A stretch of 34,002 bases of DNA from an uncultured Verrucomicrobiales bacterium (GTDB lineage Bacteria; Verrucomicrobiota; Verrucomicrobiia; Verrucomicrobiales; Akkermansiaceae), in contig CALBVY010000097.1 of the NCBI GenBank assembly GCA_937969495.1, forward strand, positions 1-34,002. Direction: 5' to 3'. The notes beneath the pieces are model-generated. The model made no database searches, was not told the DNA's origin, and was given only the letters and a program-made list of their open reading frames with translations. Of this stretch, positions 646 to 29,627 are shown one piece after another (position 1 is the first letter of the stretch; each line of letters begins with the position of its first letter). The translations under genes and the position numbers were made by a program.

Positions 646-3600
646 ATGAAAACTGTTATTATTCACCTAAGTGATATCCACCTAAAATCCAAGCATGACT
701 TAGCTCTTACATATATCCCAAAAATAGGGAATATCCTTAATGACATATCCATGGAAGCCATAGGTCACATGATTATCGCTATATCAGGAGACATTGCCTT
801 CTCAGGTAAGAAAGAAGAATACCAATTGGCTAATACAGCATTATTGGAGCTTAAGAATGCCATTCTAGCAAGCCACGATATTAAACTGGATTTTTTGTGT
901 GCTCCAGGAAACCATGATTGTGATTTCTCAAAGGATGACGCTGTCAGAGAATTGATTGTGAGCTCAATCCCTTCTGAACAAAGGAAAATTTCCGATGCCA
1001 AGTTAATTGAGCAATGCGTTAAGGTTCAGGAGGCCTTTTTCGATTTCCAACAAAGCTCAATATTCACACAACCAACGAAAGATGGCTGTAAAGTATACCA
1101 AGAGTATAAACTCGATTCGTCTCACGGGGAGTTGTATTTCCGATGCTACAATACAGCTTGGGTATCACAGTTAAAAGAGCAACCTGGAAAAATGAGCTAC
1201 CCAAGGCTCTACATGGATGATACGGCTTCCGAACCTCGTGCAGGCCTCACTGTTAGTATGCTTCACCACCCAACTAACTGGCTTACTCCAAATCGGAGAC
1301 GAAATTTTGATCACCATCTAGATAGCACCTCCGATTTAATATTATTAGGTCACGAGCACTTACCCGAAGAATATATAAAGAGTGATTTTGACGGTAATAA
1401 AGTCGGCTACATCTACGGGGGAGCTTTCCAAGAAGGTTCAAAGGATTGCCCTGGTCACTTTAACGTTATTACGATTGATGAAGAAAGCCAACAGTACCAA
1501 ATCAATTCCTATACTCGACGGAAGGACCTATTTGAAAAAAGGGATACAGACGCAAAATGGGAACCTCTTCTTAGAAATACAAAATACACCAAACACGGGC
1601 TACACTTAACAGAGTCCTATGTTGACTGGGTTACTGACCCAGAGGTAGATTTTGCGCATTACTCTGGAAAAAGACTCCTATTGGACGACTTATTCATAAT
1701 GCCTGATTTTAAATCGGCTGAAACCAAAGATTCCTCAGGCGAAACATCTAACAAGAGGAATATTCCTGCTGGAAAGTTTGATGAATTCATAACTAAAAAC
1801 AACCGAATCATCTTGTATGGAAGAGAACGTTGCGGAAAGACAACCTTAGCTAAACGCTTGTTCTGGACTTTTTTCAAAGACGATAAAATACCAGTATATC
1901 TTGATGGATCGACCCTCTCTAAAGGATCTATTAGCGGACTCGATAAATTACTACGAAAGCAATTTTGCGCCATTTTTACTAATCCTGATTTGCCACTCTT
2001 CGATCAAGCTCCAGCCAGCCGTAGAGCGTTGATTTTGGATAACCTACATCTATCAAAGCTAAACGCTCGGGGACGACTTCTCTTGATATCCAAACTCCAA
2101 GAAAAATTCTCCACTATGATCATTTTTGGTGATCCCTTAATGATGGTAGAGGAGGTCGCCTCAGGGGTTGTGATCGAAAAATCTTTACCTGATTTTGCTA
2201 AACTACATATCCGGGAGCTCGGGCGTTTTGGCAGAAGAAAACTTATTCGGCGCTGGTTCTCAATCGGCTCAAACTATTCCGCCCCCCCTTCGGAAGTCGA
2301 CAAGCAGGTTGTGCGGGCCGAAAAAACTATTAACACACTACTAGGCAATAGCTTTTTGCCGTCAAATCCGATATTTGTGCTAGGTTTTTTACAAACGTTA
2401 GATGCTACCATGAAGAAGGATCAAGTTGGAATATGCGGGTACCACTACGAGGTATTTATTACGAACTCGTTGCGTCGCTCCGCAAACAAAGCCAACCTTG
2501 ATGTGAAATACCGATTTCTTAGCGAGCTAGCATACCACCTTCACAGAAAAAACCGTACTGATCTAGAACCTTGGGAATTTCAGAAGCTATTCTCATCCTA
2601 TTGCAAAAAATACAAACGCCACCCCGATAGAGACACCGTTCTACAGGAGTTGCTAGAATCAAGGTTATTAGAGTTTTTTGACGGGACCTATAGATTCAGA
2701 TATTCATACGCTTATAACTTCTTTGTTGCTCGTTATTTCAATGAGCACCTTGAGGATCAAAATATTCGTGATGAAGTTAAGGACATGTGCCAATCTTTTC
2801 ACATCGAAAAGAATGCGGATATTTGGCTATTTCTAGTTCACCTTTCGAAAAGCCCATTCTTGCTAGAGTGCATTAGCAGAGAAGCCAACAAGCTCTTTTC
2901 CGATGCAAAACCAGCAGCCCTTGAAGGCGATGTAGAATTCCTACGAACTTTAACAACCGAAAAACTAGACCTCAAACTTCCCGATATTCGCACAGAGGAG
3001 GATATTGAAAATCACTACGAAGGGCTAGACCAAACCGATGTCATCCTCCCTGAGGACACCGCATCAGACCTGGAACCCGAGGATCGCCAAATATTGGGAA
3101 AGGTTGATGCTATGGTTCGAATGATTATGGTTCTTGGTCAAATACTTAAAAATTTCCCAGGATCACTAACAGGCGACGAAAAAACCCGGCTAGTTCAAGA
3201 CACTTTCAATCTAAGCCTCCGAGGACTATCCACGTTCTTAGGCTGGTTCCAAGAAGGCAAATCAGAATTTGTAGATTACGTATTACGCAGGATTACCTCA
3301 AAGAATAAAGAAATAGAGATTAACGATAAACTGAGAGATCAAGTTACAAAATCTCTATTTTGGCTAATGGAGATGAATATTTTGGGTTTAATACGAGTCA
3401 CCTCCTCGGGGGTCGGTGCCGAGGGGGAAGAAGAGACTTTTCATGAAGTTACTGAAGAAATCGGCTCAAATGCAGCCCAACTTATTAATGTATCTATCAG
3501 CTTAGACACATTGAAAGTCCCACAACGTGAAGTATTTCGATTAAATGAAAAATTCTCTAACGACATCCTATGTTCGAATTTATTAAAATCATTAATAGCT

Positions 3601-3723
3601 CAACATTTCTACTTATACCCTGAAGACCAAGGCATCCGTGATAAAGTCTGCTCAAAACTAGGAATCGGAACATTTGAGCGGGGGCGGGGGCTCCCCTCAA
3701 ACCCTCAGGACCGCAGAGACTAA
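646..3723 (+). CDS. Calcineurin-like phosphoesterase fused to STAND/NACHT-type NTPase, putative defence protein
   Basis: 1025-residue, two-part protein. Residues 1-~280 are a metallophosphoesterase with the full metal-binding motif set: DIH (D10, H12), GD (48-49), GNHD (88-91), HH (207-208) and GHEH (235-238). Residues ~380-700 are a P-loop NTPase: Walker A GRERCGKT (392-399), a Walker B strand ALILD (461-465), a SNP motif near 573-575 like the GxP region of STAND ATPases, and YRFRYSYAYNFFVARYF near 685-700, which resembles the end of the NACHT winged-helix region. The last ~320 residues look helical and show no recognised repeat. STAND proteins with an N-terminal effector and a C-terminal sensor are an established anti-phage and cell-suicide architecture. 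Here the phosphoesterase would be the effector. That role is inference. The gene stands alone with no adjacent effector, and its codon use is more AT-rich than the partial gene before it. Confidence 0.8.
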   Translation: MKTVIIHLSDIHLKSKHDLALTYIPKIGNILNDISMEAIGHMIIAISGDIAFSGKKEEYQLANTALLELKNAILASHDIKLDFLCAPGNHDCDFSKDDAVRELIVSSIPSEQRKISDAKLIEQCVKVQEAFFDFQQSSIFTQPTKDGCKVYQEYKLDSSHGELYFRCYNTAWVSQLKEQPGKMSYPRLYMDDTASEPRAGLTVSMLHHPTNWLTPNRRRNFDHHLDSTSDLILLGHEHLPEEYIKSDFDGNKVGYIYGGAFQEGSKDCPGHFNVITIDEESQQYQINSYTRRKDLFEKRDTDAKWEPLLRNTKYTKHGLHLTESYVDWVTDPEVDFAHYSGKRLLLDDLFIMPDFKSAETKDSSGETSNKRNIPAGKFDEFITKNNRIILYGRERCGKTTLAKRLFWTFFKDDKIPVYLDGSTLSKGSISGLDKLLRKQFCAIFTNPDLPLFDQAPASRRALILDNLHLSKLNARGRLLLISKLQEKFSTMIIFGDPLMMVEEVASGVVIEKSLPDFAKLHIRELGRFGRRKLIRRWFSIGSNYSAPPSEVDKQVVRAEKTINTLLGNSFLPSNPIFVLGFLQTLDATMKKDQVGICGYHYEVFITNSLRRSANKANLDVKYRFLSELAYHLHRKNRTDLEPWEFQKLFSSYCKKYKRHPDRDTVLQELLESRLLEFFDGTYRFRYSYAYNFFVARYFNEHLEDQNIRDEVKDMCQSFHIEKNADIWLFLVHLSKSPFLLECISREANKLFSDAKPAALEGDVEFLRTLTTEKLDLKLPDIRTEEDIENHYEGLDQTDVILPEDTASDLEPEDRQILGKVDAMVRMIMVLGQILKNFPGSLTGDEKTRLVQDTFNLSLRGLSTFLGWFQEGKSEFVDYVLRRITSKNKEIEINDKLRDQVTKSLFWLMEMNILGLIRVTSSGVGAEGEEETFHEVTEEIGSNAAQLINVSISLDTLKVPQREVFRLNEKFSNDILCSNLLKSLIAQHFYLYPEDQGIRDKVCSKLGIGTFERGRGLPSNPQDRRD

Positions 3724-4333: not shown

Positions 4334-5080
4334 CTAGATATTGATGATTAAGGAATCATAAGCTGCATAGACACTATCTGGCAGTGTGTGAGCATGGAGC
4401 CAAGCAGAGCCAGAGCAACTGAGGTGAGTAAGGTAGACTTGATTAGCCTTGAGCTCTTTTGCAATGTCGATCGCACCCGTGATGGTATTATGAGACTTGT
4501 TAGGATTGTCTGGATGTTGGTTTGCGTCAATGATGATCGTATCCGGTTGCCAAGATTCGAGAAAAGATCGAGTCTCTTCAAATAATCCACAGCAATCACA
4601 TAGATACGCTAATTTACGTTCCTGAGACTCTATGGCATAGCCAAATGTTAAATTTCCATGTGGGAGAGGTATAGGCGTTAGATTAAATTCGCCTATCTGA
4701 AATGGTCTAAACTCTTCTAGAAAAATAAAGTCTAATAATAACTCTTGATAGAGATCGCCATATCCTGTGGGGTCAGGTGGAGCATAGACTTTTATCTTTT
4801 CCCCTCTCCCCCAACTCAAGGGAAGCAGACCATAAATATGATCGGGATGAAAATGTGATATGACAATCTCTTGTAATTTTAAGTTGCTCTCTAGGAGCTG
4901 AGGGAGATCAAAACGACCTGCATCCAAGACAAACCCACTCCCTTCAGGATTTTGAACAAAATGACAGAGGCCATTTCTCTTAAGACTTGTATCATGTCTC
5001 GCTTGCTCACAGATGGCGCATTGGCACCCATAGGTAGGGATTCCGCGTGCATTACCAGTCCCTAAAAATGTAACCTCCAT
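4334..5080 (-). CDS. phnP: PhnP, phosphoribosyl cyclic phosphate phosphodiesterase
   Basis: PhnP opens the five-membered ring of 5-phosphoribosyl 1,2-cyclic phosphate, the product of C-P lyase, to give ribose 1,5-bisphosphate. The 248-residue protein has the metallo-beta-lactamase fold: an N-terminal FLGTGNARGIP strand, YGCQCAIC supplying the structural zinc cysteines seen in PhnP, the metal motif SHFHPDH near residues 95-100, a later PHG, and LTHLS near the C-terminus. Length and motif order are normal for PhnP. It is the last gene of the phn operon and starts 6 bp after the phnM stop. No convincing terminator is seen behind it. Confidence 0.9.
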   Translation of the reverse strand: MEVTFLGTGNARGIPTYGCQCAICEQARHDTSLKRNGLCHFVQNPEGSGFVLDAGRFDLPQLLESNLKLQEIVISHFHPDHIYGLLPLSWGRGEKIKVYAPPDPTGYGDLYQELLLDFIFLEEFRPFQIGEFNLTPIPLPHGNLTFGYAIESQERKLAYLCDCCGLFEETRSFLESWQPDTIIIDANQHPDNPNKSHNTITGAIDIAKELKANQVYLTHLSCSGSAWLHAHTLPDSVYAAYDSLIINI

Positions 5081-5086
5081 GATGCG

Positions 5087-6223
5087 TTAGATTCTTCGTA
5101 AAACTTGTTCTCCATCAACCCATACGCGGGTCACCACGGGTTGATTACCTTTATACTTCACTGTGATCAAATCGGCGACATAGCCCTCTGCGATTTTTCC
5201 GAATTTTTGATCTAACTGAATCCCTGCTGGATTGGCAGTTACAAGTTGGATAGCCTGTGGTAATGGCATTTTGAGCACCTCATGCACTTTAAAGGCTGCG
5301 GGTAAGAGCGCATTGGGCAAGTAATCGGACGCAAGGACATTGATAACACCTGCCTGAATGGCAGATAGAGCGCTCATGCCATTCCCTTGACTACGTCCTC
5401 GTAATACATTGGGTGCTCCTGCCATAGTCATCATACCTAAGCTTCTAGCATGTTGCGCAGCCATTTCATTGATGGGAAACTCGCTGGCAACTACTCCTAG
5501 AGCATGCATCTGGTCTACCTTCTCAAGGCTATCATCATCGTGGCTAGCAAGTGGAATGTTGAGTCGCTGACTTTCCTTGGTTAACAAAGATATAGCTTCT
5601 TCAGCTTGATGCCGTGTCTTTGCCTTTTCATCAATACGTCTTTCCGCTTCTTCTTTATCGAGCTGATAGTTTTTGATAAGAAAATCTCGATAGTCTTCCC
5701 TTTTTACAAATTGCCCCTGTCCTTCTCCGTGATCCATGAAGGAAAGCAGATCAATTTTTTTCTCCTGAATCAACCTTTGTAGATAGGGGAGACCGCCAAC
5801 TTGAGTAACCTCAAAACGGGCGTGCACGCGGTTCTTCACCGAGAGGTCTGCACGTGACTTGTAGAGACAGTCAATGATGTCACTAGAGAGGCTAGGATCT
5901 CTCACTCCGAGTTCTTTTCCTGCGAATGAAAGGCAATGGTAAATGGTGGTAATTCCGGCTACTAAATTACGTGTATCAATTTGTCGGATTGCCACGTCCA
6001 TCGGCATAATTACTCCAGCTCGTGGCTCGATTTCTTTTTCGATCGCGTCACAATGAAGGTCAACGAGACCGGGTAATAAATAATCACCTTTTAGATCTAG
6101 CTCTTTTCCTTGAGAGCTTCCGCCAATTGCATTGATTCTTCCATCAGAGATAGTGATGTTAGTATCCTCTAGAACAGTCTCTGGGGTGACTACTTTTGCA
6201 TTGATGAGTGTATAGGTAGGCAT
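5087..6223 (-). CDS. phnM: PhnM, ribose 1-methylphosphonate 5-triphosphate diphosphatase
   Basis: This amidohydrolase-superfamily enzyme removes pyrophosphate from alpha-D-ribose 1-alkylphosphonate 5-triphosphate, producing the substrate of the PhnJ lyase reaction. The 378 residues are the usual length. GDYLLPGLVDLHCD near 46-59 carries the HxD-type metal motif in the PhnM form. SHDDD near 227-231 and ASDYLPN near 300 supply further metal-site residues. The gene lies between phnL (16 bp gap) and phnP (6 bp gap) in one transcription unit. Identity is clear from the motifs and the operon context. Confidence 0.92.
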   Translation of the reverse strand: MPTYTLINAKVVTPETVLEDTNITISDGRINAIGGSSQGKELDLKGDYLLPGLVDLHCDAIEKEIEPRAGVIMPMDVAIRQIDTRNLVAGITTIYHCLSFAGKELGVRDPSLSSDIIDCLYKSRADLSVKNRVHARFEVTQVGGLPYLQRLIQEKKIDLLSFMDHGEGQGQFVKREDYRDFLIKNYQLDKEEAERRIDEKAKTRHQAEEAISLLTKESQRLNIPLASHDDDSLEKVDQMHALGVVASEFPINEMAAQHARSLGMMTMAGAPNVLRGRSQGNGMSALSAIQAGVINVLASDYLPNALLPAAFKVHEVLKMPLPQAIQLVTANPAGIQLDQKFGKIAEGYVADLITVKYKGNQPVVTRVWVDGEQVLRRI

Positions 6224-6239
6224 GATATTGAAATAAAAA

Positions 6240-6929
6240 TTAACTCACGGTGATCACCTTATCGGAAAAATTTTCGATCATATCGATATCGTGAAAGATA
6301 GATAACACCGCCATTTTTTGCGTCTTGATGACTTCCATAATGTGCTCCATTACTTTTACTGAAGTTGCTTGATCGAGACTGGCCGTAGGTTCATCTAATA
6401 AAAGGAGCCGAGGTTGCAGAATCATGCCACGAGCTAAATTAACGCGTTGGCGTTCACCTCCAGAAAATGTAGATGGCGACAGGTTCCACAAGCTTTCGCG
6501 AAGCATGAAAAGCTTTAACTGATCCGCAGCAGCGTCTAAAGCCTCTTCTTTTTTCCACCCTTGTTTCAGGAGAGGTTGAGCAACGACTTCGAGTGAGGAT
6601 TTACGCGGGAGCGAATGCAGAAATTGGGTTACAAACCCGATGTCTCCCGACTTTCGCAGAGCTAACATTCCTGCATCTGGTAGCTGTATGAGGTCTACTT
6701 GATCTTGATCTCGCTGCGTAAACAAAATTTTCCCAGTATCCGATAAACAAGTACGGTAAATGCAATTTAAGATCGAGGATTTACCGACCCCAGAAGGGCC
6801 TGAAAGCACCACACTCTCACCAGCACATACTTCAAAACTGAGATTCTTAAAGGTTGAAACAAGGCGTTCCTGCTCATGCACGAAATACGTTTTCGTGAGA
6901 TTCTGGACACTTAGTATGGGCATAGACAT
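6240..6929 (-). CDS. phnL: PhnL, C-P lyase ABC-type ATPase
   Basis: Second ABC-type ATPase of the C-P lyase operon, required for attaching the phosphonate to ribose triphosphate together with PhnG, PhnH and PhnI. Motifs: Walker A GPSGVGKSS, signature FSGGERQRVNLARG, Walker B LLLLDEPTASLD. The N-terminal MSMPILSVQNLTKTY matches family starts, so the ATG at 6929 is chosen. An upstream in-frame ATG at 6986 would add 19 residues encoded inside phnK. The alternative ATG at 6923 is equally possible. The gene starts 7 bp after the phnK stop. Confidence 0.92.
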   Translation of the reverse strand: MSMPILSVQNLTKTYFVHEQERLVSTFKNLSFEVCAGESVVLSGPSGVGKSSILNCIYRTCLSDTGKILFTQRDQDQVDLIQLPDAGMLALRKSGDIGFVTQFLHSLPRKSSLEVVAQPLLKQGWKKEEALDAAADQLKLFMLRESLWNLSPSTFSGGERQRVNLARGMILQPRLLLLDEPTASLDQATSVKVMEHIMEVIKTQKMAVLSIFHDIDMIENFSDKVITVS

Positions 6930-6936
6930 CGTAAAA

Positions 6937-7773
6937 TTAAAGTTCTGAGGAAATAAGGCGTTGCGTATACTTATGCTGTGGGTCATGTAAGACTTGATCG
7001 GTAAGACCGCCTTCTACCACCTGCCCATTTTTCATCACTATCGTGCGATCAGCTAACAGACGCACAACACCTAGATCATGGGTGACCACAATCATAGCAA
7101 CATCAAGATCATAGCGTAATTGCAAGATGAGATCGAGAATACGTGCTTGCACTGATAGATCTAACCCCGTGGTAACTTCATCGAGAAAGAGCAATGAAGG
7201 CTTCGTTACCAGAGCTTTTGCAATTTGCACTCGTTGTTGCATCCCACCAGAAAAATCAGCGGGCATATCATCCATCCGAGCAAGAGGAATTTCTACTTTT
7301 TCTAAATATGATTGCACAGAAGAGCGGATCTTTGCGTAATTACGGGAGCCACCCATCAACAAACGCTCTGCGATATTACCGCCCACGGTGAAATCAAAGT
7401 TTAGACCGATGTGGGGATTTTGATAGACCATCCCTAAGCGATTATTTCTCAGCCATCTTTGCTGAGCTGCATGTTGCGCAAATAAATCAATACGTTCTCC
7501 TTGTTGATCCGTAAACCAAGCTTTTCCAGAAGTAACACTCTGATCAAAATAGAGCGATTTGACCAAGGTTGATTTACCACTACCTGACTCACCAACAATG
7601 CCTAAGCATTCATTGGCATGGAGATCAAAGGAAACCCCACCTAGCGCAACGATCGAGCCACAGCTTGGACAAATATTAGATGCATGCTCAGGGCCAGTAG
7701 ACTGCAGACAATCAGGACACTCTGAGCCATACACCTTCTTGACATTGTTTACTTCCAGCACCTTATTGGCCAT
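6937..7773 (-). CDS. phnK: PhnK, C-P lyase ABC-type ATPase with N-terminal zinc-ribbon-like insertion
   Basis: ATPase subunit that docks on the PhnGHIJ core complex. Walker A GESGSGKS, signature FSGGMQQRVQIAKAL, and an N-terminus in the usual family form (VLEVNNVKKVYG). Between the first beta strand and the LGGVSFDLHANE segment sits an insertion with C19-x2-C22-x12-C35-x2-C38, a likely zinc knuckle pair. E. coli PhnK lacks it, which explains the 278 residues instead of about 250. The start overlaps the 3' end of phnJ by 11 bp, so translational coupling is likely. How common the insertion is in other PhnK proteins cannot be judged here. Confidence 0.93.
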   Translation of the reverse strand: MANKVLEVNNVKKVYGSECPDCLQSTGPEHASNICPSCGSIVALGGVSFDLHANECLGIVGESGSGKSTLVKSLYFDQSVTSGKAWFTDQQGERIDLFAQHAAQQRWLRNNRLGMVYQNPHIGLNFDFTVGGNIAERLLMGGSRNYAKIRSSVQSYLEKVEIPLARMDDMPADFSGGMQQRVQIAKALVTKPSLLFLDEVTTGLDLSVQARILDLILQLRYDLDVAMIVVTHDLGVVRLLADRTIVMKNGQVVEGGLTDQVLHDPQHKYTQRLISSEL

Positions 7774-8638
7774 TCTTTTGATTGGTTAAATTTTGCAGAC
7801 AGAAATCAGTGTCCGAGCACTTATACTGCACCACTCCATCATCTGTGTAATGCTCATCAAAATACACTCCTTTTGCCCCACAAACAGAGCATGAAGCTTG
7901 CTCGCCATCTTGATCGAGAAAGCTTTCAACGCGAAAGGCGTGATCCTCAAATGCCAAAGGCTTTGCATCCGTATACGGAGGAACTGCGTAGATCTTCTTC
8001 TCACGACCAGCTCCAAACAAATGAATAACAGGAGACTGATGTAGTCTAGCAGTGTCATAGCGTGGAATCGGAGAGGGATCTATCACATAGCCGCCATGGA
8101 TCTCTGTGGGATAGCGGTGCGAAATGGTAATTTCACCATACCTGACAATATCCTCATAGAGTTTAACCCATAGTTTAGCATAGTCAGCCTCACTATGCAT
8201 AACGCGACGTTTGGACTCACTAGCTTCTACAACTACAAGAGAATCAGGATAAGGTACTTGAAAAACGAGAATCTGCCCTTCGCTCATAGGAGCTTCTGGT
8301 ATGCGGTGTCTCGTTTGCACGATACTCGCTTCAGTGGCTTTGTTCGTTACATGCACTCCCGAGCACACTTGTTGGACGAAGCCTTTAATATTTTCCGCAT
8401 TGACTGATTCATCACTTCCTTGGTCGATTACTTTTAAAGTATCTGTTGGACCAATCATGGATAAGGTGAGCTGCAGCCCACCTGTACCGAACCCACGCCC
8501 CATCGGCATTTCCCTAGAGCTGTAGGGAACTTGATATCCAGGAATACAAATGGCTTTCAAGGTAGCTCGCCGTACCTCTCTCTTTGCATATTCATCGATA
8601 AACCCGAAATGATCTTGTTGTGTTAGAGAGTGCCTCAT
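7763..8638 (-). CDS. phnJ: PhnJ, radical SAM carbon-phosphorus lyase
   Basis: PhnJ performs the C-P bond cleavage, releasing alkane (methane from methylphosphonate) and leaving 5-phosphoribosyl 1,2-cyclic phosphate. The 291-residue protein carries the atypical C-terminal cluster-binding cysteines, C250, C253, C274 and C280. Their spacing (3, 21, 6) is close to that of E. coli PhnJ (3, 22, 6). GTGGLQL near residue 31 contains the glycine region that forms the glycyl radical. Other conserved blocks are KAICIPGYQVP, QTRHRIPE and FGAGREKKIYAVPP. All catalytic elements appear intact. The start overlaps the phnI stop by 4 bp (ATGA) and the 3' end overlaps phnK. Confidence 0.96.
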   Translation of the reverse strand: MRHSLTQQDHFGFIDEYAKREVRRATLKAICIPGYQVPYSSREMPMGRGFGTGGLQLTLSMIGPTDTLKVIDQGSDESVNAENIKGFVQQVCSGVHVTNKATEASIVQTRHRIPEAPMSEGQILVFQVPYPDSLVVVEASESKRRVMHSEADYAKLWVKLYEDIVRYGEITISHRYPTEIHGGYVIDPSPIPRYDTARLHQSPVIHLFGAGREKKIYAVPPYTDAKPLAFEDHAFRVESFLDQDGEQASCSVCGAKGVYFDEHYTDDGVVQYKCSDTDFCLQNLTNQKNGQ

Positions 8639-9732
8639 GACTTTTCTTGCTGTTTCTGTGTCTCACGTGCCCGGTCAAGATCGGATTCGAAGGTGACATA
8701 ATGGGGCATTTTATAGTGGATCGCAAAACCCATGGAATCGATGCTATCGATATGGTTAAGTAAAAACTCAGGATCTTCAGATGGGTGAGTCACACCGTGC
8801 CTTCTTCCGTTATCCAGAGAGCGGTCTAAGATCGCCATGCAGATAGCTTTTGTTTCATTATGGCCAAAACATGCTCCATAACCAGTGCTCAGATACACTT
8901 GCCCTGAATCTGGATCTATCTGATGACTCGCCACAACTTCGCACTCCGTAATAAGAACTTCACCAATTTCTATATCCTCACCGGTTACTGGGTGCTTCGC
9001 GATTACAGGGAGATAGCCTACACGTAGTTCTGCAATGGTTGGGTGCACATCTCCATAACCACGCATATTCGAATACGCGAGAGCGAGCAGCCCGCCTGTA
9101 TCGGCTCTCGCCATCAAGGCTAACTGAGCATTGCGCGGTAATGGATGCACTAGCGGTTCACGTGTAATGTCAAATACCTCATTATCTCTAATCTGAAAAG
9201 GCGGCAATAAACCCTCATCTCTGAGAAAATCCATTACTTTGGGATATGAATCAGGTATGGCAGCGGAGCTGTCTGGCTGCTTAACCCAACTACTAACAAC
9301 ATCATCAAATTCCTGCTTCGTCTCGTCATGGAGTGCAAAATTGAATAGGCGCTGTATGTAATCCGTAGTGGGACCTAACATTTGCCCACCAGGAATATCC
9401 TTAAATGCAGATGAAATACGCCTAATCAATCGCATGGAAGAGGTTTCTAATACCTTGGTAGTTCCTAATCTCGGGCGTGTAGATCTGTAAGCTCTGAGGT
9501 AGTATGCCGCTTCCAAGCTGTCTCCCCTGCTTTGTTTAATAGCTAGACTTACTAAATCTTCATCATACAAGCCACCTTCAGAAAGCACCACACTGTGCAA
9601 TGCGCCCAATTGACTTTTAATCGTTTTAGTCTGCAAGGGAAGATTCTCTTCATCAGAGCAACGCAAGATTTCTAACATTCTAGCTGCCTGTTTGATGGCT
9701 TCTTTACCACCTTTGATTGGAACGTAGGACAT
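8635..9732 (-). CDS. phnI: PhnI, C-P lyase core subunit (nucleosidase)
   Basis: PhnI, with PhnG, PhnH and PhnL, replaces the adenine of ATP by a phosphonate. The 365 residues match the family length. The N-terminal MSYVPIKGGKEAI block and internal blocks such as ARADTGGLLALAYS, RVGYLPV and LSTGYGACFGHNETKAI are typical PhnI sequence. The gene begins directly after the phnH stop (TAAATG, no gap) and ends in a 4-bp overlap with phnJ, as expected for a stoichiometric complex. Confidence 0.95.
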   Translation of the reverse strand: MSYVPIKGGKEAIKQAARMLEILRCSDEENLPLQTKTIKSQLGALHSVVLSEGGLYDEDLVSLAIKQSRGDSLEAAYYLRAYRSTRPRLGTTKVLETSSMRLIRRISSAFKDIPGGQMLGPTTDYIQRLFNFALHDETKQEFDDVVSSWVKQPDSSAAIPDSYPKVMDFLRDEGLLPPFQIRDNEVFDITREPLVHPLPRNAQLALMARADTGGLLALAYSNMRGYGDVHPTIAELRVGYLPVIAKHPVTGEDIEIGEVLITECEVVASHQIDPDSGQVYLSTGYGACFGHNETKAICMAILDRSLDNGRRHGVTHPSEDPEFLLNHIDSIDSMGFAIHYKMPHYVTFESDLDRARETQKQQEKS

Positions 9733-10281
9733 TTAGTTGGCTTGGTTTAATTTTACATAACGAGGCAGAGCGATGATCTGTCGTGGCCAGACAAATACTA
9801 CATCAACGCCCATCGGAAGCTCTGTGACCCAAGACTCTCTTTGCTCAATCCAGCTTTGGGTTTCTACTGGATAAAAGACAACCTGCTCTCCCTTGATCCC
9901 TGGTCCCTGGCAATGGTACTCGATCGAGTTTAACGTAGTTTCAGAGAAGCAAATAAAGACCGTAGCACCCATGTGTGGATCAACTAAAGAGCCTCGCTTA
10001 GGAAGCCATTTTTTCTGAGTCGGATTTTCACCTTTTAGTAAGAGAAAAGAAGCAGAAGTTTCAGGACCGATCTTAGCTCCGAGAAGGCGTAGCTCATGCT
10101 CACTCAATACATCATCTTCTACAAATACATCTGAATGCCTATCTATCAGGCTTGAAAATAGGGCTAATAAACTAATATCAGGCGTAAGCTCATGGAATTT
10201 GCTCGGAAAACTCAGTGCATTTAGCAAAATCCTGTAGGCAGATTGCCCCAATAGTTCTTCTGTGTTAATATTTTCTAACAT
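9733..10281 (-). CDS. phnH: PhnH, C-P lyase core subunit
   Basis: Small core subunit of the PhnGHIJ complex. 182 residues, close to the usual ~190. Recognised from its place between phnG and phnI and from sequence such as YRILLNALSFPSKF near the N-terminus and GTVFICFS-like and GPGI segments (here GATVFICFSETTL and CQGPGIKGEQ), followed by the conserved GVDVVFV near the end. It starts 16 bp after the phnG stop and abuts phnI. PhnH has no known separate enzymatic motif; it acts within the complex. Confidence 0.9.
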   Translation of the reverse strand: MLENINTEELLGQSAYRILLNALSFPSKFHELTPDISLLALFSSLIDRHSDVFVEDDVLSEHELRLLGAKIGPETSASFLLLKGENPTQKKWLPKRGSLVDPHMGATVFICFSETTLNSIEYHCQGPGIKGEQVVFYPVETQSWIEQRESWVTELPMGVDVVFVWPRQIIALPRYVKLNQAN

Positions 10282-10297
10282 TAATATCTACTTGTTA

Positions 10298-10738
10298 TTA
10301 TCCTTCCAGTAGTGAGAAATCTACTTTCGTTGCAGCGAGCATATTTTTTCTCTCTTTGGTCTTTTTCTGCATTCGTTCCATACCTTTTTCTGCAAGCTCA
10401 AGGACTTGCTCTCTAAAGGCGGTTTGAGATATCGCTAAGGCATCACAAATGGCAATATTGGTAGCAAATTTAATATTATCGCACATCACCACAGCACCTC
10501 CCTCGAAGGACTCTTCTTCTTTTTTAATTTTGACGCATACCACTGCCTGAGCCACAGAAATCTCTCCTAGGAAAAATGGCTCATGGTTTACCCCATCCTT
10601 TATTTTAAGATGATAAAGCCCACCTTCGGCTGGCTCCAGAGCACTAACCTCGATCAGAGGTTGAATACGAGAGACATATTCCTCTACCTCCTCAGGGTCT
10701 AGTTTGATTAGATTTTCGACTATCTGAACTCGGTTCAT
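10298..10738 (-). CDS. phnG: PhnG, C-P lyase core subunit
   Basis: First of the four core genes, phnGHIJ. The 146-residue length is typical. The FFLGEISVAQAVVCV segment, followed by GGAVVMCDNIKFATNIAICDAL, matches the PhnG pattern in which the protein contacts substrate and other subunits. A Lys- and Met-rich stretch (ERMQKKTKERKNM) precedes the C-terminus. It starts 6 bp after the phnE stop, so transport and core genes share one transcript. Confidence 0.9.
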   Translation of the reverse strand: MNRVQIVENLIKLDPEEVEEYVSRIQPLIEVSALEPAEGGLYHLKIKDGVNHEPFFLGEISVAQAVVCVKIKKEEESFEGGAVVMCDNIKFATNIAICDALAISQTAFREQVLELAEKGMERMQKKTKERKNMLAATKVDFSLLEG

Positions 10739-10744
10739 ACTCTG

Positions 10745-11785
10745 TTATTTATTATTTTCTTTAATCAAAGACTGACGAATCTTAGCCGATAAAATATCTA
10801 GGGAGAAAACCGTAACAAAAAGAGCAATCAAAATGGTGCACACGTGACCGTAGTCAAACATATCAAACCTGCCTTTCAGCTCCATACCTATCCCTCCAGC
10901 GCCGACTATTCCTACAACAATCGCCATTCTAACATTTCTATCAACGATATATAAGGTATAAGCAACGTATTGAGGAAAGACCTGAGGAAAGACGCCATAA
11001 AGCAGTGTTTTAATTTTCCCTGCATTTACCGCTAACATCACATCCTGAGGACCTCGATCGGCATTTTCGATATCTTCAGCATAAAATTTCCCAAAGAATC
11101 CTGCACAGTGAAAACCAAGAGCGAGTATTCCTGCAACGGGGCCGAACCCAAAGGCCAGCACTAAGAACAAGGCACTAATAAGCTCTGGAACCGCTCGTAG
11201 TAAACTTACAAACGCCCTCGCTGCGTGATAGATCGGTTTATTAGGAGCATAGTTAGCTGATGAACAATAAGCTAATGGAATACTAACGATAATGGCAATA
11301 ATCGTGCCCCATAATGCAATTTCCAAAGAATCATACATCTTTTTGATGACATGAACTAAATAACCAAATCTTTTTACTAAGACTTCTTTTTCTTCTCTTA
11401 CTTCTTCTAGCTCTAGAGTATCAGTATTATATTCTTTATAGATTTGAACCTCTTTTTCTACATGAGAAAAAAGGGGTAGATTATCAGGGTCAAAGTCATC
11501 AATTCGCGATAGCTCTTGACGCTCAGAAATCACCGGAGGGAACATCTTTTCCGCTAATTTCTGAGTGCCTCTTCCGATTTCCGAGGTCTCTTTTAAGCCT
11601 ACAAGATCTTGCGCCCACTCGAATGTGCTAGAGATCATTCTCGGCACCTCTGTGTTTTTACCCGTATGAATCAGGATGACAAATAGCACGATGAGGATGC
11701 CTACCGTCTTGGCATTATATGGCTGGTGAAGTTTCCATTGAGATGGATTTATAGGCTGCTCCTGTTCACCTTTTTGCTTACTCAT
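10745..11785 (-). CDS. phnE: PhnE, phosphonate ABC transporter permease with long extracytoplasmic segment
   Basis: Inner-membrane permease for phosphonate import with PhnC and PhnD. One membrane helix lies at residues ~27-43 (VGILIVLFVILIHTG). It is followed by a hydrophilic, Glu-rich stretch to about residue 145. The binding-protein-dependent transport domain then runs to the end, with helices starting at SLEIALWGTIIAIIV and an EAA-like loop around PQDVMLAVNAGKIKTLL. VGIVGAGGIGMELKG near the C-terminus is highly typical of PhnE. At 346 residues it is longer than the usual 260-290 because of the segment between helices 1 and 2. It lies 24 bp after phnC. Confidence 0.9.
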   Translation of the reverse strand: MSKQKGEQEQPINPSQWKLHQPYNAKTVGILIVLFVILIHTGKNTEVPRMISSTFEWAQDLVGLKETSEIGRGTQKLAEKMFPPVISERQELSRIDDFDPDNLPLFSHVEKEVQIYKEYNTDTLELEEVREEKEVLVKRFGYLVHVIKKMYDSLEIALWGTIIAIIVSIPLAYCSSANYAPNKPIYHAARAFVSLLRAVPELISALFLVLAFGFGPVAGILALGFHCAGFFGKFYAEDIENADRGPQDVMLAVNAGKIKTLLYGVFPQVFPQYVAYTLYIVDRNVRMAIVVGIVGAGGIGMELKGRFDMFDYGHVCTILIALFVTVFSLDILSAKIRQSLIKENNK

Positions 11786-11809
11786 ATACGTCGTAAATAA
11801 AGGTTATTA

Positions 11810-12535
11810 TTAGGCATAGATTTTCTCTAAATCTTGCTGGGTTAGTAACTCAGGTGTACCATCAAATACAATTTTCCCCTTGTTAACTCCGATAATTCGC
11901 TCCCCAAACTCCTTGGCTAAATCCACCTGATGCAAGCTACAAAGCACCGTTGTATTATTCCTCTGTGCCGCATTTCTTAGAATACTTAGTACATTACGAC
12001 TAATGTTAGGGTCTAAACTCGCCACTGGTTCATCAGCTAACACAATAGAGGGATCGAGGATAAAGGCTCTCGCAATTCCTACACGCTGCTGTTGTCCTCC
12101 AGAAAGTTCGACCACACGCCGATACAGATGCTTTTCCTCCAATCCTACGGAAGCAATTAGATCACATGCTTTACGCCGTAAAGGCTGAGGAAAGACTCCG
12201 AATAAGGCCCGTAAAAGTGAAACTTTAGACAGGGCACCTGCTAACACATTTTTCTCTACACTCATCCGAGTGACGAGATTGAAGTTTTGGTGGATGGTAG
12301 AAATGATGGATCGGATTTCTTTTAACGCCTTCGGCAAGAGTGTTTTCCCATTAATAGTTATACTCCCTTTACTAGGAGTGACCATGCCATTGAGTAGCTT
12401 CAAGAGTGTCGACTTACCGGCCCCAGAGGGACCGAGTAAGACGCAGAATTCACCCTCTTGGATTTCTAATGAAATATCGTCAATAGCGAAGGTGCCATCA
12501 GGATATTGCTTAGTCAGAGTCTGTAATTGAATCAT
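11810..12535 (-). CDS. phnC: PhnC, phosphonate ABC transporter ATP-binding protein
   Basis: Cytoplasmic ATPase that powers phosphonate import. The 241 residues contain Walker A GPSGAGKST, a Q-loop region with HQNFNLV, signature LSGGQQQRVGIARAF and Walker B VLADEPVASLD followed by the H-loop SLHQVDLA. The HQNFNLV and DEPVASLD wording is that of PhnC, not of a generic importer ATPase. The gene lies between phnD (37 bp gap) and phnE (24 bp gap). Confidence 0.93.
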   Translation of the reverse strand: MIQLQTLTKQYPDGTFAIDDISLEIQEGEFCVLLGPSGAGKSTLLKLLNGMVTPSKGSITINGKTLLPKALKEIRSIISTIHQNFNLVTRMSVEKNVLAGALSKVSLLRALFGVFPQPLRRKACDLIASVGLEEKHLYRRVVELSGGQQQRVGIARAFILDPSIVLADEPVASLDPNISRNVLSILRNAAQRNNTTVLCSLHQVDLAKEFGERIIGVNKGKIVFDGTPELLTQQDLEKIYA

Positions 12536-12572
12536 AAGACAAGATTTCTAAGAGGGTGAATCAGCAGATGTG

Positions 12573-13496
12573 TTATTCAGCCGCCTTCTTCAGCATTTCT
12601 CTTTTCAAACTCGTTGTCACTTTTGATAGTTTATTTACTGCATCAGCCATCAGCTTATGGCTGATTTCTGTATTGTATTTTTCATACACCTTACCTCCAT
12701 AACCACGGATTTGCTCTGGCTTAACCGCAGGGTTTGTGTGTAATCCTGCAAACGCTTTGCGTAGCTTAACCTTTAAGTCTTCTCCAAGCTCTGGATGCAT
12801 TGCGAGTGGCGGATTCGGAATCGGCTCACTTTTAATAAGCGGATGAAACTTTTCTGGATCAATTGCATTAGCTTTCACTGCTTTCCCAAAAGATGGGAAA
12901 GAACATGCACAGGCATCAACTTTACCATTAGAAAGCGCCGCTATACTGTTAGAATGACTGCCAGTAATATAAACCTTATTTAAGTCTTTTACTGGATCAA
13001 CGCCTTCAGCTAGTAACATTGCAACAGGGTAATTAAAACTAGAAGTTGAGCTAGGATCACCAAACGCCACTTTTTTTCCCTTTAAATCCTTAATCGATTT
13101 AATTCCAGAATCTTTGGCCACGAAGATACCTGAATAATAAACAGCATCGCCTTTTTTCTCTGCAACTGCGAGAAGTTCAGCTCCTCCCTTTTCATGCGCC
13201 TGCATATAGGAAACTGCTCCAAACCAAGCTACTTCTGCTTGTTTATTAGCCATAGCCTCTACTGCAGCTCCATAACTCTGCGCAACTTTGATATCAAAGT
13301 GTATACCAGTGTCATTAGTAACGGCTTTAAAAAGAGGCTTAAAATCTGCAATGGTTCCTTCTTCTGTTCCCCCATCTGCTGGGATCAGTATTACTCGCAG
13401 TGGTTGTTGTTTTGATCCATCTGTGACTGCATTAGCCGATCCAGTGACTGACATCAATGTCAGAGCTCCGATTAGTAGTTTGAATATTTTTTTCAT
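12573..13496 (-). CDS. phnD: PhnD, periplasmic phosphonate-binding protein
   Basis: Solute-binding protein for phosphonates or phosphate-like ligands, and first clear gene of the phn operon. It has a Sec signal peptide (MKKIFKLLIGALTL, then SANA before the cleavage point, about residue 23) and no lipobox Cys. Residues after ~30 have the PhnD family blocks: EVAWFGAVSY, a SGIFVAKDSG strand, KGKKVAFGDPSSTSSFNYP (the ligand-contacting Ser/Thr block) and GKVDACACS. 307 residues is normal. The upstream 193 bp holds a possible leader peptide gene and dyads. Confidence 0.93.
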   Translation of the reverse strand: MKKIFKLLIGALTLMSVTGSANAVTDGSKQQPLRVILIPADGGTEEGTIADFKPLFKAVTNDTGIHFDIKVAQSYGAAVEAMANKQAEVAWFGAVSYMQAHEKGGAELLAVAEKKGDAVYYSGIFVAKDSGIKSIKDLKGKKVAFGDPSSTSSFNYPVAMLLAEGVDPVKDLNKVYITGSHSNSIAALSNGKVDACACSFPSFGKAVKANAIDPEKFHPLIKSEPIPNPPLAMHPELGEDLKVKLRKAFAGLHTNPAVKPEQIRGYGGKVYEKYNTEISHKLMADAVNKLSKVTTSLKREMLKKAAE

Positions 13497-21630: not shown

Positions 21631-22470
21631 ATGCCTACAGCTATTCACCTCATTCATGGCGATTGTCTTGAGAAAATGAAAAACATGCCCGCTGGAGAAA
21701 CTAATCTCGTGGTTACTTCACCTCCCTATAATCTGGGAATTAACTACAATACCTATCAAGACACCAGTGACCGATCCGCCTTTATCACCTGGTGTTTAGA
21801 ATGGGCAACAGAGGTAAAACGTGTGATGTCAGAGGATGCGTCTTTTTTCCTCAACGTAGGCGCAGCCCCTAGTAACCCGCTGTTACCCCACCAACTTTTA
21901 CTCGCACTAACAGACACAGGAAAAACTCCACTATTCACACTCCAGAACACCTTCCACTGGGTTAAATCCATCTCGGTCCAAACACGCACAGGAGAAACTG
22001 TTAGCGCCGGCCATTTCAAACCTATTAATAGCAAGCGCTACGTCAATGACTGCCATGAGTATGTCTTCCATCTCACCAAATCTGGCACAGTACCTCTAGA
22101 TCGACGTGGCGCAGGAGTCCCCTATGTTTATAAATCAAACATCGCACGCTGGGGGCATACGGAGGGGAAAGATAAGAGATGCCGGGGTAATACTTGGTTT
22201 ATTCCTTACGATACCATTATGAGTAGAAGTAAAGACAGGCCACACCCAGCGACATTCCCAGTAGGCCTCGTCGAGCAGTGTATCCGTATCCATGGTCAGG
22301 GTGAAGCCACTAATTTGTTAGACCCTTTCAATGGTATCGGCACTTCCGCAGTAGCAGCATACCGCTCTGGTATAAGCTCTTACACTGGATTTGATATTGA
22401 TGAAGATTACCTCGCAGTCACCCATGAGCGTCTACGTGCGGAGGAAGAGGAGGAAACTGAACTTTTCTAA
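21631..22470 (+). CDS. Orphan DNA methyltransferase (beta-class, N4-cytosine or N6-adenine)
   Basis: 279 residues. The catalytic motif TSPPYN (29-34) comes first and the SAM-binding motif DPFNGIGTSAVAA (from 231) last, the order of beta-class amino-methyltransferases. The SPPY form is more frequent in N4-cytosine enzymes, but N6-adenine enzymes also use it, so the target base is open. The region between the motifs (~residues 110-200) holds the target recognition part. No restriction endonuclease gene is adjacent, so it appears solitary. It could have an epigenetic role or be a remnant of a restriction system. Confidence 0.85.
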   Translation: MPTAIHLIHGDCLEKMKNMPAGETNLVVTSPPYNLGINYNTYQDTSDRSAFITWCLEWATEVKRVMSEDASFFLNVGAAPSNPLLPHQLLLALTDTGKTPLFTLQNTFHWVKSISVQTRTGETVSAGHFKPINSKRYVNDCHEYVFHLTKSGTVPLDRRGAGVPYVYKSNIARWGHTEGKDKRCRGNTWFIPYDTIMSRSKDRPHPATFPVGLVEQCIRIHGQGEATNLLDPFNGIGTSAVAAYRSGISSYTGFDIDEDYLAVTHERLRAEEEEETELF

Positions 22471-22526: not shown

Positions 22527-23528
22527 ATGCAAGATGTCACAGACTTGCCCTTTATGCGTGTGATGCAGCGCTACGGCGGACCAGATATCTACGTTACGGA
22601 ATACTTCCGCGTGCATGCGGCGTATCAGCTTGAGAAGCATATCCTACGCAGCATCACGGATAGCCACACAGGCAGACCCGTTTATGCTCAGATGATTGGC
22701 CAAGATATCACTGCTCTCGTTCGCTGTGCTCAAGAATTACTAACCTATCCAGTAGCGGGAATTGATATCAATCTTGGCTGCCCTGCACCCGTGGTCTGCC
22801 GTAAGGATGCAGGAGGAGGACTACTACGGAAAACTGATCATCTAAACAGGATTCTCGGCGCTCTACGCGCCACCATCCCAGGGAAATTCACCGTAAAAAC
22901 CCGTGTGGGCTACCATTCACATGAGGAATTCAATCATTTGTTAAAGATTTTTAAAAGTCACGGTATTGATACCCTTACTATTCATGGAAGAACCGTCATG
23001 GAACGTTACCGCACTCCCATCCATACCAGCTGTATTCGCACGGCTGTGGAGCAGATGAACTGCCCGGTGATCGCCAATGGTAACATCGTGGATGCGGAGA
23101 CAGGTATCGGTCTCGCTCAGCGAACTGGAGCTGCCGGGCTGATGATCGGCAGAGGTGCTATCCGTAATCCATGGCTCTTTTCTCAGCTTCGAGACGCTTT
23201 CTTAGGGCATACGCCCAAGATCATCAAACGATCTGATTTGTTTGAATACATCATGGATCTCTACCAAGAGCTCGCTAGCTACCAGCAGCACTCTGGGCAG
23301 GGGAAATTTGATGCGCGCAAGCACGTACAACGGATGAAAAAATACATGGTCTACATCGCCCAAGGGCTCGATTCAGAATTTGAATACCTCATAAGGCGCA
23401 GCACCACAGAGGAGGAATTCCAGACTATCTGTCAGGATTTCCTTAATTCCCCTGACAGCCTTCCCCCCCGCCCCCCTGAGGACTCCAAGCTGTTCTGTGG
23501 ATTCGCTGCATTGCGCAGTGACGCCTGA
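22527..23528 (+). CDS. tRNA-dihydrouridine synthase, true start probably upstream at a non-standard codon
   Basis: FMN enzyme that reduces uridine in tRNA. DINLGCPAP, the catalytic Cys in VVCRKDAGGGLL (C91), KTRVGY, THGRT-like IHGRT, IANGNI and GLMIGRGAIRNPWLF (FMN phosphate contacts) are clear. The first ATG (22527) lies inside the conserved first strand: codons just upstream in frame read KLALAP before MQDVTDLPF. Between the in-frame TGA at 22458 and 22527 there is no ATG, GTG or TTG. An ATC at 22482 or CTG at 22518 would restore the strand. The 3' end carries a Pro-rich stretch before the TGA stop. Confidence 0.88.
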   Translation: MQDVTDLPFMRVMQRYGGPDIYVTEYFRVHAAYQLEKHILRSITDSHTGRPVYAQMIGQDITALVRCAQELLTYPVAGIDINLGCPAPVVCRKDAGGGLLRKTDHLNRILGALRATIPGKFTVKTRVGYHSHEEFNHLLKIFKSHGIDTLTIHGRTVMERYRTPIHTSCIRTAVEQMNCPVIANGNIVDAETGIGLAQRTGAAGLMIGRGAIRNPWLFSQLRDAFLGHTPKIIKRSDLFEYIMDLYQELASYQQHSGQGKFDARKHVQRMKKYMVYIAQGLDSEFEYLIRRSTTEEEFQTICQDFLNSPDSLPPRPPEDSKLFCGFAALRSDA

Positions 23529-28124: not shown

Positions 28125-28904
28125 ATGAGCCTGAAACCCATTATTTACACTGCTATTACTACTATTCTTATTATGTTTGGAATGAAATTAATCCGCGGCT
28201 CAGAAGAGCTTGTCACAGAAAATGGTCACGTCTCCGCCACCATATTACCTATGGACCAGACAACGGCACAGACAAAATATGACACAGCCACCTTTGGTAT
28301 GGGATGATTCTGGGGACCTGATTCCGAGTTCGGAAGTATCCCCGGCGTCCTGCGCACCCGTGCCGGCTACTGTGGTGGCAGTAAGGAGAAACCCACCTAT
28401 CGCAGTATGGGGGATCACACGGAAGCTGTATCTATTGACTTTGATCCCACCGTAATCAGCTATGAAACATTATTAAACTATTTCTGGAATGGTCATCGTT
28501 GCGAATTAAACCAATCAAACACTCAGTATATGAATGCCATTTTTTATCAAAATAATGCGCAAAAAGAAATCGCTGAAAAATCACTCAAGCAACAAGCAAA
28601 ACAGCTCGGTATAGCCATCGACGGTATAAAAACAAAGATCCTCCCTGTGCGAGAATTTACTTATGCAGAAGGCTACCATCAGAAATACCACCTCAGAAGT
28701 GGCAGTGATCTCCGGGAGTTTCTTCAAGAAATCTACCCAGATGCCAAATCAATGGCAGACTCCACTGTAGCCACAAGACTCAATGCTTATCTCGGCAGTG
28801 GCTCTAGTAAACATTGGCCATCTTTTCTCAAGGAATTATCCAGCTATGGACTCCCAGAAAAACTAGAGGCTCAAATTAGAAAAATAGCAGAACAAAAGCG
28901 ATAG
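28125..28904 (+). CDS. msrA: Selenocysteine-containing peptide-methionine (S)-S-oxide reductase MsrA, membrane-anchored
   Basis: Reads through an in-frame TGA (28305-28307) as one 259-residue protein. The TGA is residue 61, exactly where MsrA has its catalytic Cys: FGMG, TGA, FWGPD, in place of GCFW. Downstream sequence is intact MsrA: VLRTRAGYCGG, GDHTEAVSIDFDP, YFWNGHR, YHQKYHLR. Other Cys at 83 and 126 could resolve the selenenyl intermediate. A hydrophobic N-terminal segment (residues ~6-20) suggests a membrane anchor or uncleaved signal. The frame before and after the TGA is continuous, and TGA is used as a true stop by several neighbours. A hairpin of bacterial SECIS type follows. selA, selB, selC and selD are not in the window. 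Alternatives are a nonsense mutation or a sequencing error. Confidence 0.85.
28310..28345 (+). promoter_or_regulatory. Putative bacterial SECIS hairpin in msrA
   Basis: Starts two bases after the TGA. Lower stem CTGGGGA (28310-28316) pairs with TCCCCGG (28339-28345), seven pairs including one U-G. An internal loop (CCTGA against GTA) follows. Upper stem TTCCG (28322-28326) pairs with CGGAA (28331-28335), with apical loop AGTT (28327-28330). The loop has G within its first two positions and begins 19 bases after the TGA. As I recall the published bacterial SECIS rules, both fall in the allowed range. SelB binding is inferred. Confidence 0.7.
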
Positions 28905-28937: not shown

Positions 28938-29627
28938 ATGACCACCAATCTCACGCCCCCTCTCAATATCCTCTATCAGGATGAGTGGTTAGTTGCCGTT
29001 GACAAACCACCAGGCCACCTCGTCCACCCTGCCGATAACCCTCAAGAGGGTGACCAGGTAACCATGAAAATCCTCCGTGATCAGTTAGGTAAGCTAGTTT
29101 ATAACGTTCACCGTCTCGACCGCCCCACCACAGGCGTTTTACTCTTTGGCATTGATAACGTAGTCGCCAAACACCTACATCGTGCACTAGAACGGCATGA
29201 AATTAAAAAAACCTACCTTGCCATTTCCCAAGGAACTCCTGAGCAAGATCAATGGCAATGCCACGAGCCCATTCAAAAAGATCCAGATCAGCCCATCCGT
29301 GAAGCTCATACAAGCTTTCGTGTATTAAAAAAATCAACTATCCAAAAAACTCACCTAACACTCATTGAGGCCACTCCGCATACAGGAAGATTTCATCAAA
29401 TACGTCGCCATTTACTCCATGCTGGACTACCTATCACAGGCGACTATCGCTACTCCGGCATTGAAAAATCTAACCATCTAGGAGAAATTCTAGGCACTGG
29501 CTCACGGATGCTACTGCAAGCTCGTGCCATTGCGTTTGATCATCCCATCACTGGAGACCCCATCCATATTCAGGCTCCTCCAGACCCTCAATTCACCCGC
29601 TGCTTCCCCCATTATTTTAAATCATGA
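28938..29627 (+). CDS. truC: TruC-like tRNA pseudouridine synthase
   Basis: RluA-superfamily enzyme, probably for U65 of tRNA. 229 residues. NILYQDEWLVAVDKPPGHLVH and the catalytic HRLDRPTTGVLLFG are very close to TruC wording. TGRFHQIRRHLLHAGLPITGD is the second core block. No S4 domain is present, as in TruC. It overlaps the next gene by 4 bp (ATGA), so the two are translationally coupled. Confidence 0.85.
   Translation: MTTNLTPPLNILYQDEWLVAVDKPPGHLVHPADNPQEGDQVTMKILRDQLGKLVYNVHRLDRPTTGVLLFGIDNVVAKHLHRALERHEIKKTYLAISQGTPEQDQWQCHEPIQKDPDQPIREAHTSFRVLKKSTIQKTHLTLIEATPHTGRFHQIRRHLLHAGLPITGDYRYSGIEKSNHLGEILGTGSRMLLQARAIAFDHPITGDPIHIQAPPDPQFTRCFPHYFKS

What the first reader, a model, noticed from the sequence alone, without database searches (positions are those of the whole stretch)
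28310..28345. Two-tiered hairpin right after the TGA with a GU apical loop
Lower 7-bp stem, internal loop, upper 5-bp stem and AGUU loop 19 bases past the TGA. This matches the general form of bacterial SECIS elements, which sit inside the coding sequence just after the UGA and present a G/U loop to SelB. The hairpin is also part of the coding sequence, so compensatory third-position changes would be telling.
Basis: partly seen in the sequence, partly recalled or inferred. Interest (0 to 1): 0.7.

Follow-up and report, generated by a model that had tools for sequence, protein, structure and literature searches.

The report
Selenocysteine insertion hairpin in MsrA gene
Just after an in-frame UGA codon in a methionine sulfoxide reductase gene of a Verrucomicrobiota bacterium lies an RNA hairpin that almost certainly tells the ribosome to insert selenocysteine instead of stopping; this is a well-known kind of signal, here backed by unusually clear evolutionary evidence.

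Summary
The hairpin is real and the reading as a bacterial SECIS element is well supported. The TGA (28305-28307) sits at the catalytic Cys position of an MsrA (GUFWG motif; ORF 28125-28904, 259 aa). The genome carries SelA, SelB, a Sec-containing SelD and tRNA-Sec. All 36 complete family orthologues keep the TGA; a wider scan gives 66 distinct Sec genes from five phyla. Of 124 testable codon columns, only codons +6, +7 and +10 after the TGA show excess synonymous conservation, and these lie in the apical stem-loop. The hairpin co-varies: Glu-type genes (GAG) always carry UUC and GGA/C/U (34/34), Gln/Arg-type genes always carry GGG (32/32). The two types pair the stem in registers shifted by one base. 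Cys homologues lack the hairpin. The lower 7-bp stem is the minimum-energy fold of this sequence but is not conserved; only the upper stem and its AGUU loop are. No Rfam model matches. The closest characterised relative is the native selenoprotein MsrA of Clostridium oremlandii, including its C-terminal helical domain. New member of a known kind; the register-shift covariation is the one fresh detail. Sec insertion was not tested experimentally.

The parts
28125..28904 (+). msrA gene read with TGA as selenocysteine, 259 aa, Sec at residue 61; start codon ATG at 28125 is the best-fitting one, not proven
28305..28307 (+). in-frame TGA at the catalytic Cys position (ATFGMG-U-FWG)
   Evidence: TGA in all 36 complete family orthologues
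28322..28335 (+). apical stem-loop of the SECIS: UUCCG-AGUU-CGGAA; the conserved, functional core
28327..28330 (+). apical loop AGUU, presumed SelB contact (inferred)
28310..28345 (+). whole two-tiered hairpin as described; lower stem 28310-28316/28339-28345 folds here but is not conserved
28717..28901 (+). C-terminal region matching the helical domain of C. oremlandii MsrA (approximate limits)
   Evidence: query 50-256 aligned to chain 5-206; domain described in PMC4333827

Best explanation
The hairpin is the bacterial SECIS element of a selenocysteine-containing MsrA. During translation SelB, carrying Sec-tRNA(Sec) and GTP, binds the apical stem-loop (loop AGUU) and delivers Sec to the UGA 19 nt upstream of the loop, so the ribosome reads through and makes a 259-aa enzyme whose catalytic residue is Sec61 and which reduces methionine-S-sulfoxide. 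A hydrophobic N-terminus suggests export or membrane attachment. Shown here: the codon, the hairpin, its conservation and covariation, the Sec machinery and its co-occurrence. Inferred: SelB binding, Sec insertion, activity and location.
For: TGA at the catalytic Cys of MsrA. SelB, tRNA-Sec (TCA), SelA and SelD in the same genome, SelD itself with Sec motif CAGUASK. 36/36 complete family orthologues keep TGA. SelA in 70/260 family genomes but in 35/37 with this MsrA, P 1.8e-21. Only codons +6, +7, +10 show excess synonymous conservation (z 5.7, 3.7, 5.3). Apical hairpin synonymous z mean -2.17, negative in all 36. Glu-type 34/34 with UUC and GG[ACU], Gln/Arg-type 32/32 with GGG; 2 to 7 independent switches, all concordant. 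Sec genes fold at -6.55, Cys genes at -2.05 kcal/mol in the same 18 nt. Closest solved relative is a native selenoprotein MsrA (PMC4479559).
Against: Whole-segment stability is not above synonymous expectation across relatives (mean z +0.05), and the lower stem is not conserved. No Rfam match. Two genomes with the TGA gene lack a SelA hit, probably through assembly gaps. No experiment.
Confidence: 0.96

Rival explanations
1. The TGA is a true stop or a sequencing error: a broken msrA with a downstream remnant, and the hairpin is chance.
For: Standard gene calling stops there; a loose bSECIS filter passes 12% of TGAs; the genome has an intact Cys MsrA elsewhere.
Against: 36/36 complete orthologues in different species keep the TGA and about 199 conserved residues after it; Sec machinery and co-occurrence.
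Confidence: 0.01
2. TGA is recoded as Trp or another residue in this genome.
For: The frame is open past the TGA.
Against: TGA is an ordinary stop in neighbouring genes (8635-9732 on the - strand, 22527-23528, 28938-29627). The site aligns with catalytic Cys, and the Sec system is present.
Confidence: 0.01
3. Sec is inserted, but the conserved codons reflect peptide or codon-usage constraint and SelB recognises some other structure.
For: The segment encodes a conserved peptide DS[EQ]FGS next to the active site; whole-segment folding is not unusual in most relatives.
Against: Synonymous choices are fixed only at the stem positions, and Gly third base follows the Glu/Gln identity without exception, which peptide constraint does not explain; Cys homologues lack both.
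Confidence: 0.03

Closest known systems
Selenoprotein MsrA of Clostridium oremlandii OhILAs (PDB 4u66, 4lwj; PMC4479559, PMC4333827)
   Same: Catalytic Sec in a GUFWG-type site, no standard resolving-Cys arrangement in the conserved core, and the same C-terminal helical domain; alignment covers residues 50-256 (E 2e-47)
   Different: The window protein has about 45 extra N-terminal residues with a hydrophobic stretch and keeps Cys at 83 and 126, while CoMsrA has no Cys; its SECIS was not compared here
Bacterial SECIS elements, consensus bSECIS model (PMC13188914)
   Same: Immediately downstream of the UGA in the coding sequence, loop of 4 nt with G second, 19 nt from UGA, 5-bp upper stem, energy below -7.5 kcal/mol
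   Different: Two stem registers within one gene family, linked to a Glu/Gln change; no Rfam model matches it
Sec-MsrA genes of the Global Ocean Sampling survey (PMC2398784)
   Same: Nine Sec-MsrA sequences are reported there, in a selenoprotein set defined together with bacterial SECIS elements
   Different: Not compared directly; the hosts of those reads were not looked up here

Membership tests
Bacterial SECIS element | Stem-loop in the coding sequence just downstream of an in-frame UGA, apical loop 16-37 nt away | tested here: met
   Loop begins 19 nt after TGA
[quoted passage not shown]
   AGUU loop, 5-bp stem, -22.1 kcal/mol for the 51-nt segment; model from PMC13188914
Bacterial SECIS element | Pairing conserved among UGA homologues by compensatory change, absent in Cys homologues | tested here: met
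   Upper stem: yes, in two registers. Lower stem: not conserved
Bacterial SECIS element | Binds SelB and directs Sec insertion | not testable with these tools
   Needs binding or reporter assay
Sec-decoding trait | selA, selB, selD and tRNA-Sec in the genome | tested here: met
Selenoprotein MsrA | MsrA domain with UGA at the catalytic Cys, GUFWG motif | tested here: met
Selenoprotein MsrA | Sec found in the protein; MsrA activity | not testable with these tools
   Needs 75Se labelling, mass spectrometry, enzyme assay
Rfam RNA families, release 15 | Match to any curated covariance model | tested here: not met
   No match at gathering score; only chance-level matches at a relaxed threshold

The most novel reading that the evidence does not exclude
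In this MsrA family the SECIS has repeatedly switched between two stem registers. A change between Gln and Glu codons (C or G in the stem) is matched by synonymous changes in the Phe and Gly codons that slide the 3' strand by one base and change the loop between AGUUY and AGUU, while the AGUU seen by SelB stays the same. The RNA would thus dictate both codon choice and the Glu/Gln residue near an active site.
Probability: 0.6. Interest if true: 0.45.

Novelty: new member of a known kind. Interest (0 to 1): 0.33.

Why it matters
It adds a well-supported selenoprotein gene and SECIS in the family Akkermansiaceae and its neighbours, where standard gene callers truncate the protein (the plain ORF list gives only a 165-aa fragment starting at 28407). 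The linked Glu/Gln and synonymous changes are a natural mutational record of what SelB tolerates in the stem, and can be tested directly.

Tried and rejected
Rfam search at gathering and relaxed thresholds gave nothing useful. Whole-hairpin stability against synonymous nulls failed as a conserved signal (mean z +0.05 over 36 genes), which led to testing the tiers apart: the upper tier is conserved, the lower is not. A loose bSECIS scan was too permissive to be evidence alone (12% of TGAs; and only 43 of 66 Sec genes pass it). Stop codon, sequencing error, TGA=Trp and peptide-only constraint were considered and rejected as set out under the rivals. Structure prediction was not run because sequence similarity to a solved selenoprotein MsrA is already strong. 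First attempts at motif extraction and alignment failed on a wrong pattern or frame and were repeated.

Full report
Observation. Its energy is better than most shuffles (z -2.35) and most synonymous versions (z -2.16). Alone this is weak evidence, since 12% of all TGAs in the window pass a loose bSECIS filter.

Context. Reading the TGA as a residue joins an ORF of 259 aa, 28125-28904, that is an MsrA (Pfam PMSR 1.7e-39; TIGR00401 above cut-off), with the TGA at the catalytic cysteine, ATFGMG(U)FWG. The closest solved proteins are those of Clostridium oremlandii MsrA (E 2e-47), a native selenoprotein whose Sec form is about 20-fold more active than its Cys form (PMC4479559) and whose C-terminal helical domain is essential (PMC4333827). 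The alignment covers that domain too.

Machinery. The same genome has SelB, tRNA-Sec with anticodon TCA, SelA and SelD. SelD has its own in-frame TGA at CAG(U)ASK, so the genome encodes at least two likely selenoproteins. In 260 genomes of the family, SelA occurs in 70, and 35 of the 37 genomes with this MsrA subfamily have it (hypergeometric P 1.8e-21; related genomes are not independent, so the P value is only a guide). TGA also serves as an ordinary stop in neighbouring genes.

Relatives. All 36 complete orthologues in the family have TGA at this site; one further hit is cut by a contig end. A scan of public genomes added relatives from Verrucomicrobiales (including cultured Roseibacillus ishigakijimensis and R. 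persicicus) and from Chloroflexota, Nitrospirota, Planctomycetota and deltaproteobacterial (Desulfosarcinaceae, Desulfomonile) MAGs with TGA, and Planococcus, Sporosarcina, Salinicoccus, Domibacillus and others with TGC or TGT. After removing duplicates there are 66 Sec and 15 Cys genes.

RNA-level selection. In a codon alignment of 36 genes, 124 columns with a conserved amino acid were tested for excess codon identity; only codons +6, +7 and +10 after the TGA exceeded z 2 (5.7, 3.7, 5.3). They encode the two strands of the upper stem and the start of the loop. The apical 18 nt alone are more stable than the mean of their synonymous versions in every one of the 36 genes (mean z -2.17; individually most are not significant). 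The same 18 nt fold at -6.55 kcal/mol on average in Sec genes and -2.05 in Cys genes (P 2.6e-8), although the Cys genes form one side of the tree, so this is one evolutionary contrast.

Covariation. Residue +7 is Glu in 34 Sec genes and Gln or Arg in 32. Glu genes always have UUC for Phe +8 and GGA, GGC or GGU for Gly +9; Gln/Arg genes always have GGG. In the Glu type the stem pairs 28324-28333, 28325-28332 and 28326-28331 (window numbering); in the Gln type the same 5' bases pair one position further 3'. Each register fits its own group (89% and 94% of cells paired) and fits the other poorly (61% both ways). The tree, built without the hairpin codons, needs 7 switches between types; on well-supported branches alone there are 2 independent contrasts, and the Gly base follows in both.

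What is not supported. The lower stem is not conserved: pairs at 28312-28314 are kept in only 26-31 of 66 genes, and changing only the flanking synonymous codons gives a mean z of -0.08. It is stable in the window gene (z -2.05) and in a few relatives. No Rfam family matches.

Mechanism. SelB with Sec-tRNA(Sec) most likely binds the AGUU loop and upper stem and inserts Sec at the UGA. This step is inferred from established knowledge of bacterial Sec insertion (reviewed in PMC13188914), not shown here. The window protein keeps Cys83 and Cys126, which CoMsrA lacks; whether either resolves a selenenic acid on Sec61 is open.

Conclusion. This is a bacterial SECIS element in a selenoprotein msrA, with the functional core in the upper stem-loop. 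Both the element class and Sec-MsrA are known (PMC13188914, PMC2398784). In the papers searched I found no report of Sec-MsrA in Verrucomicrobiota, but the library is incomplete. Sec insertion itself remains to be shown by experiment.

Noticed in passing
L084 (same genome, contig C22): selD carries an in-frame TGA in the motif SCAG(U)ASK, so selenophosphate synthetase is itself a likely selenoprotein.
   Followed up: partly
L166 (same genome, contig C87): A second, Cys-containing MsrA with no internal stop (205.8 bits to PF01625).
   Followed up: no
window 4334-13496, - strand: A run of genes that reads by eye as a C-P lyase (phn) cluster; PhnJ at 7763-8638 confirmed by Pfam.
   Followed up: partly
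window 646-3723, + strand: 1025-aa protein with a calcineurin-like phosphoesterase and a STAND-type NTPase domain; matches PADLOC candidate defence family PDC-S60 (2e-92; Pfam).
   Followed up: partly
window 21631-22470, + strand: N6/N4 DNA methylase (PF01555; PADLOC MTase_II 6.8e-77); no restriction enzyme partner was looked for.
   Followed up: partly
G704 and G756 (family genomes): Carry the TGA-containing MsrA but no SelA hit. G704 has a tRNA-Sec; assembly gaps are the likely reason.
   Followed up: no
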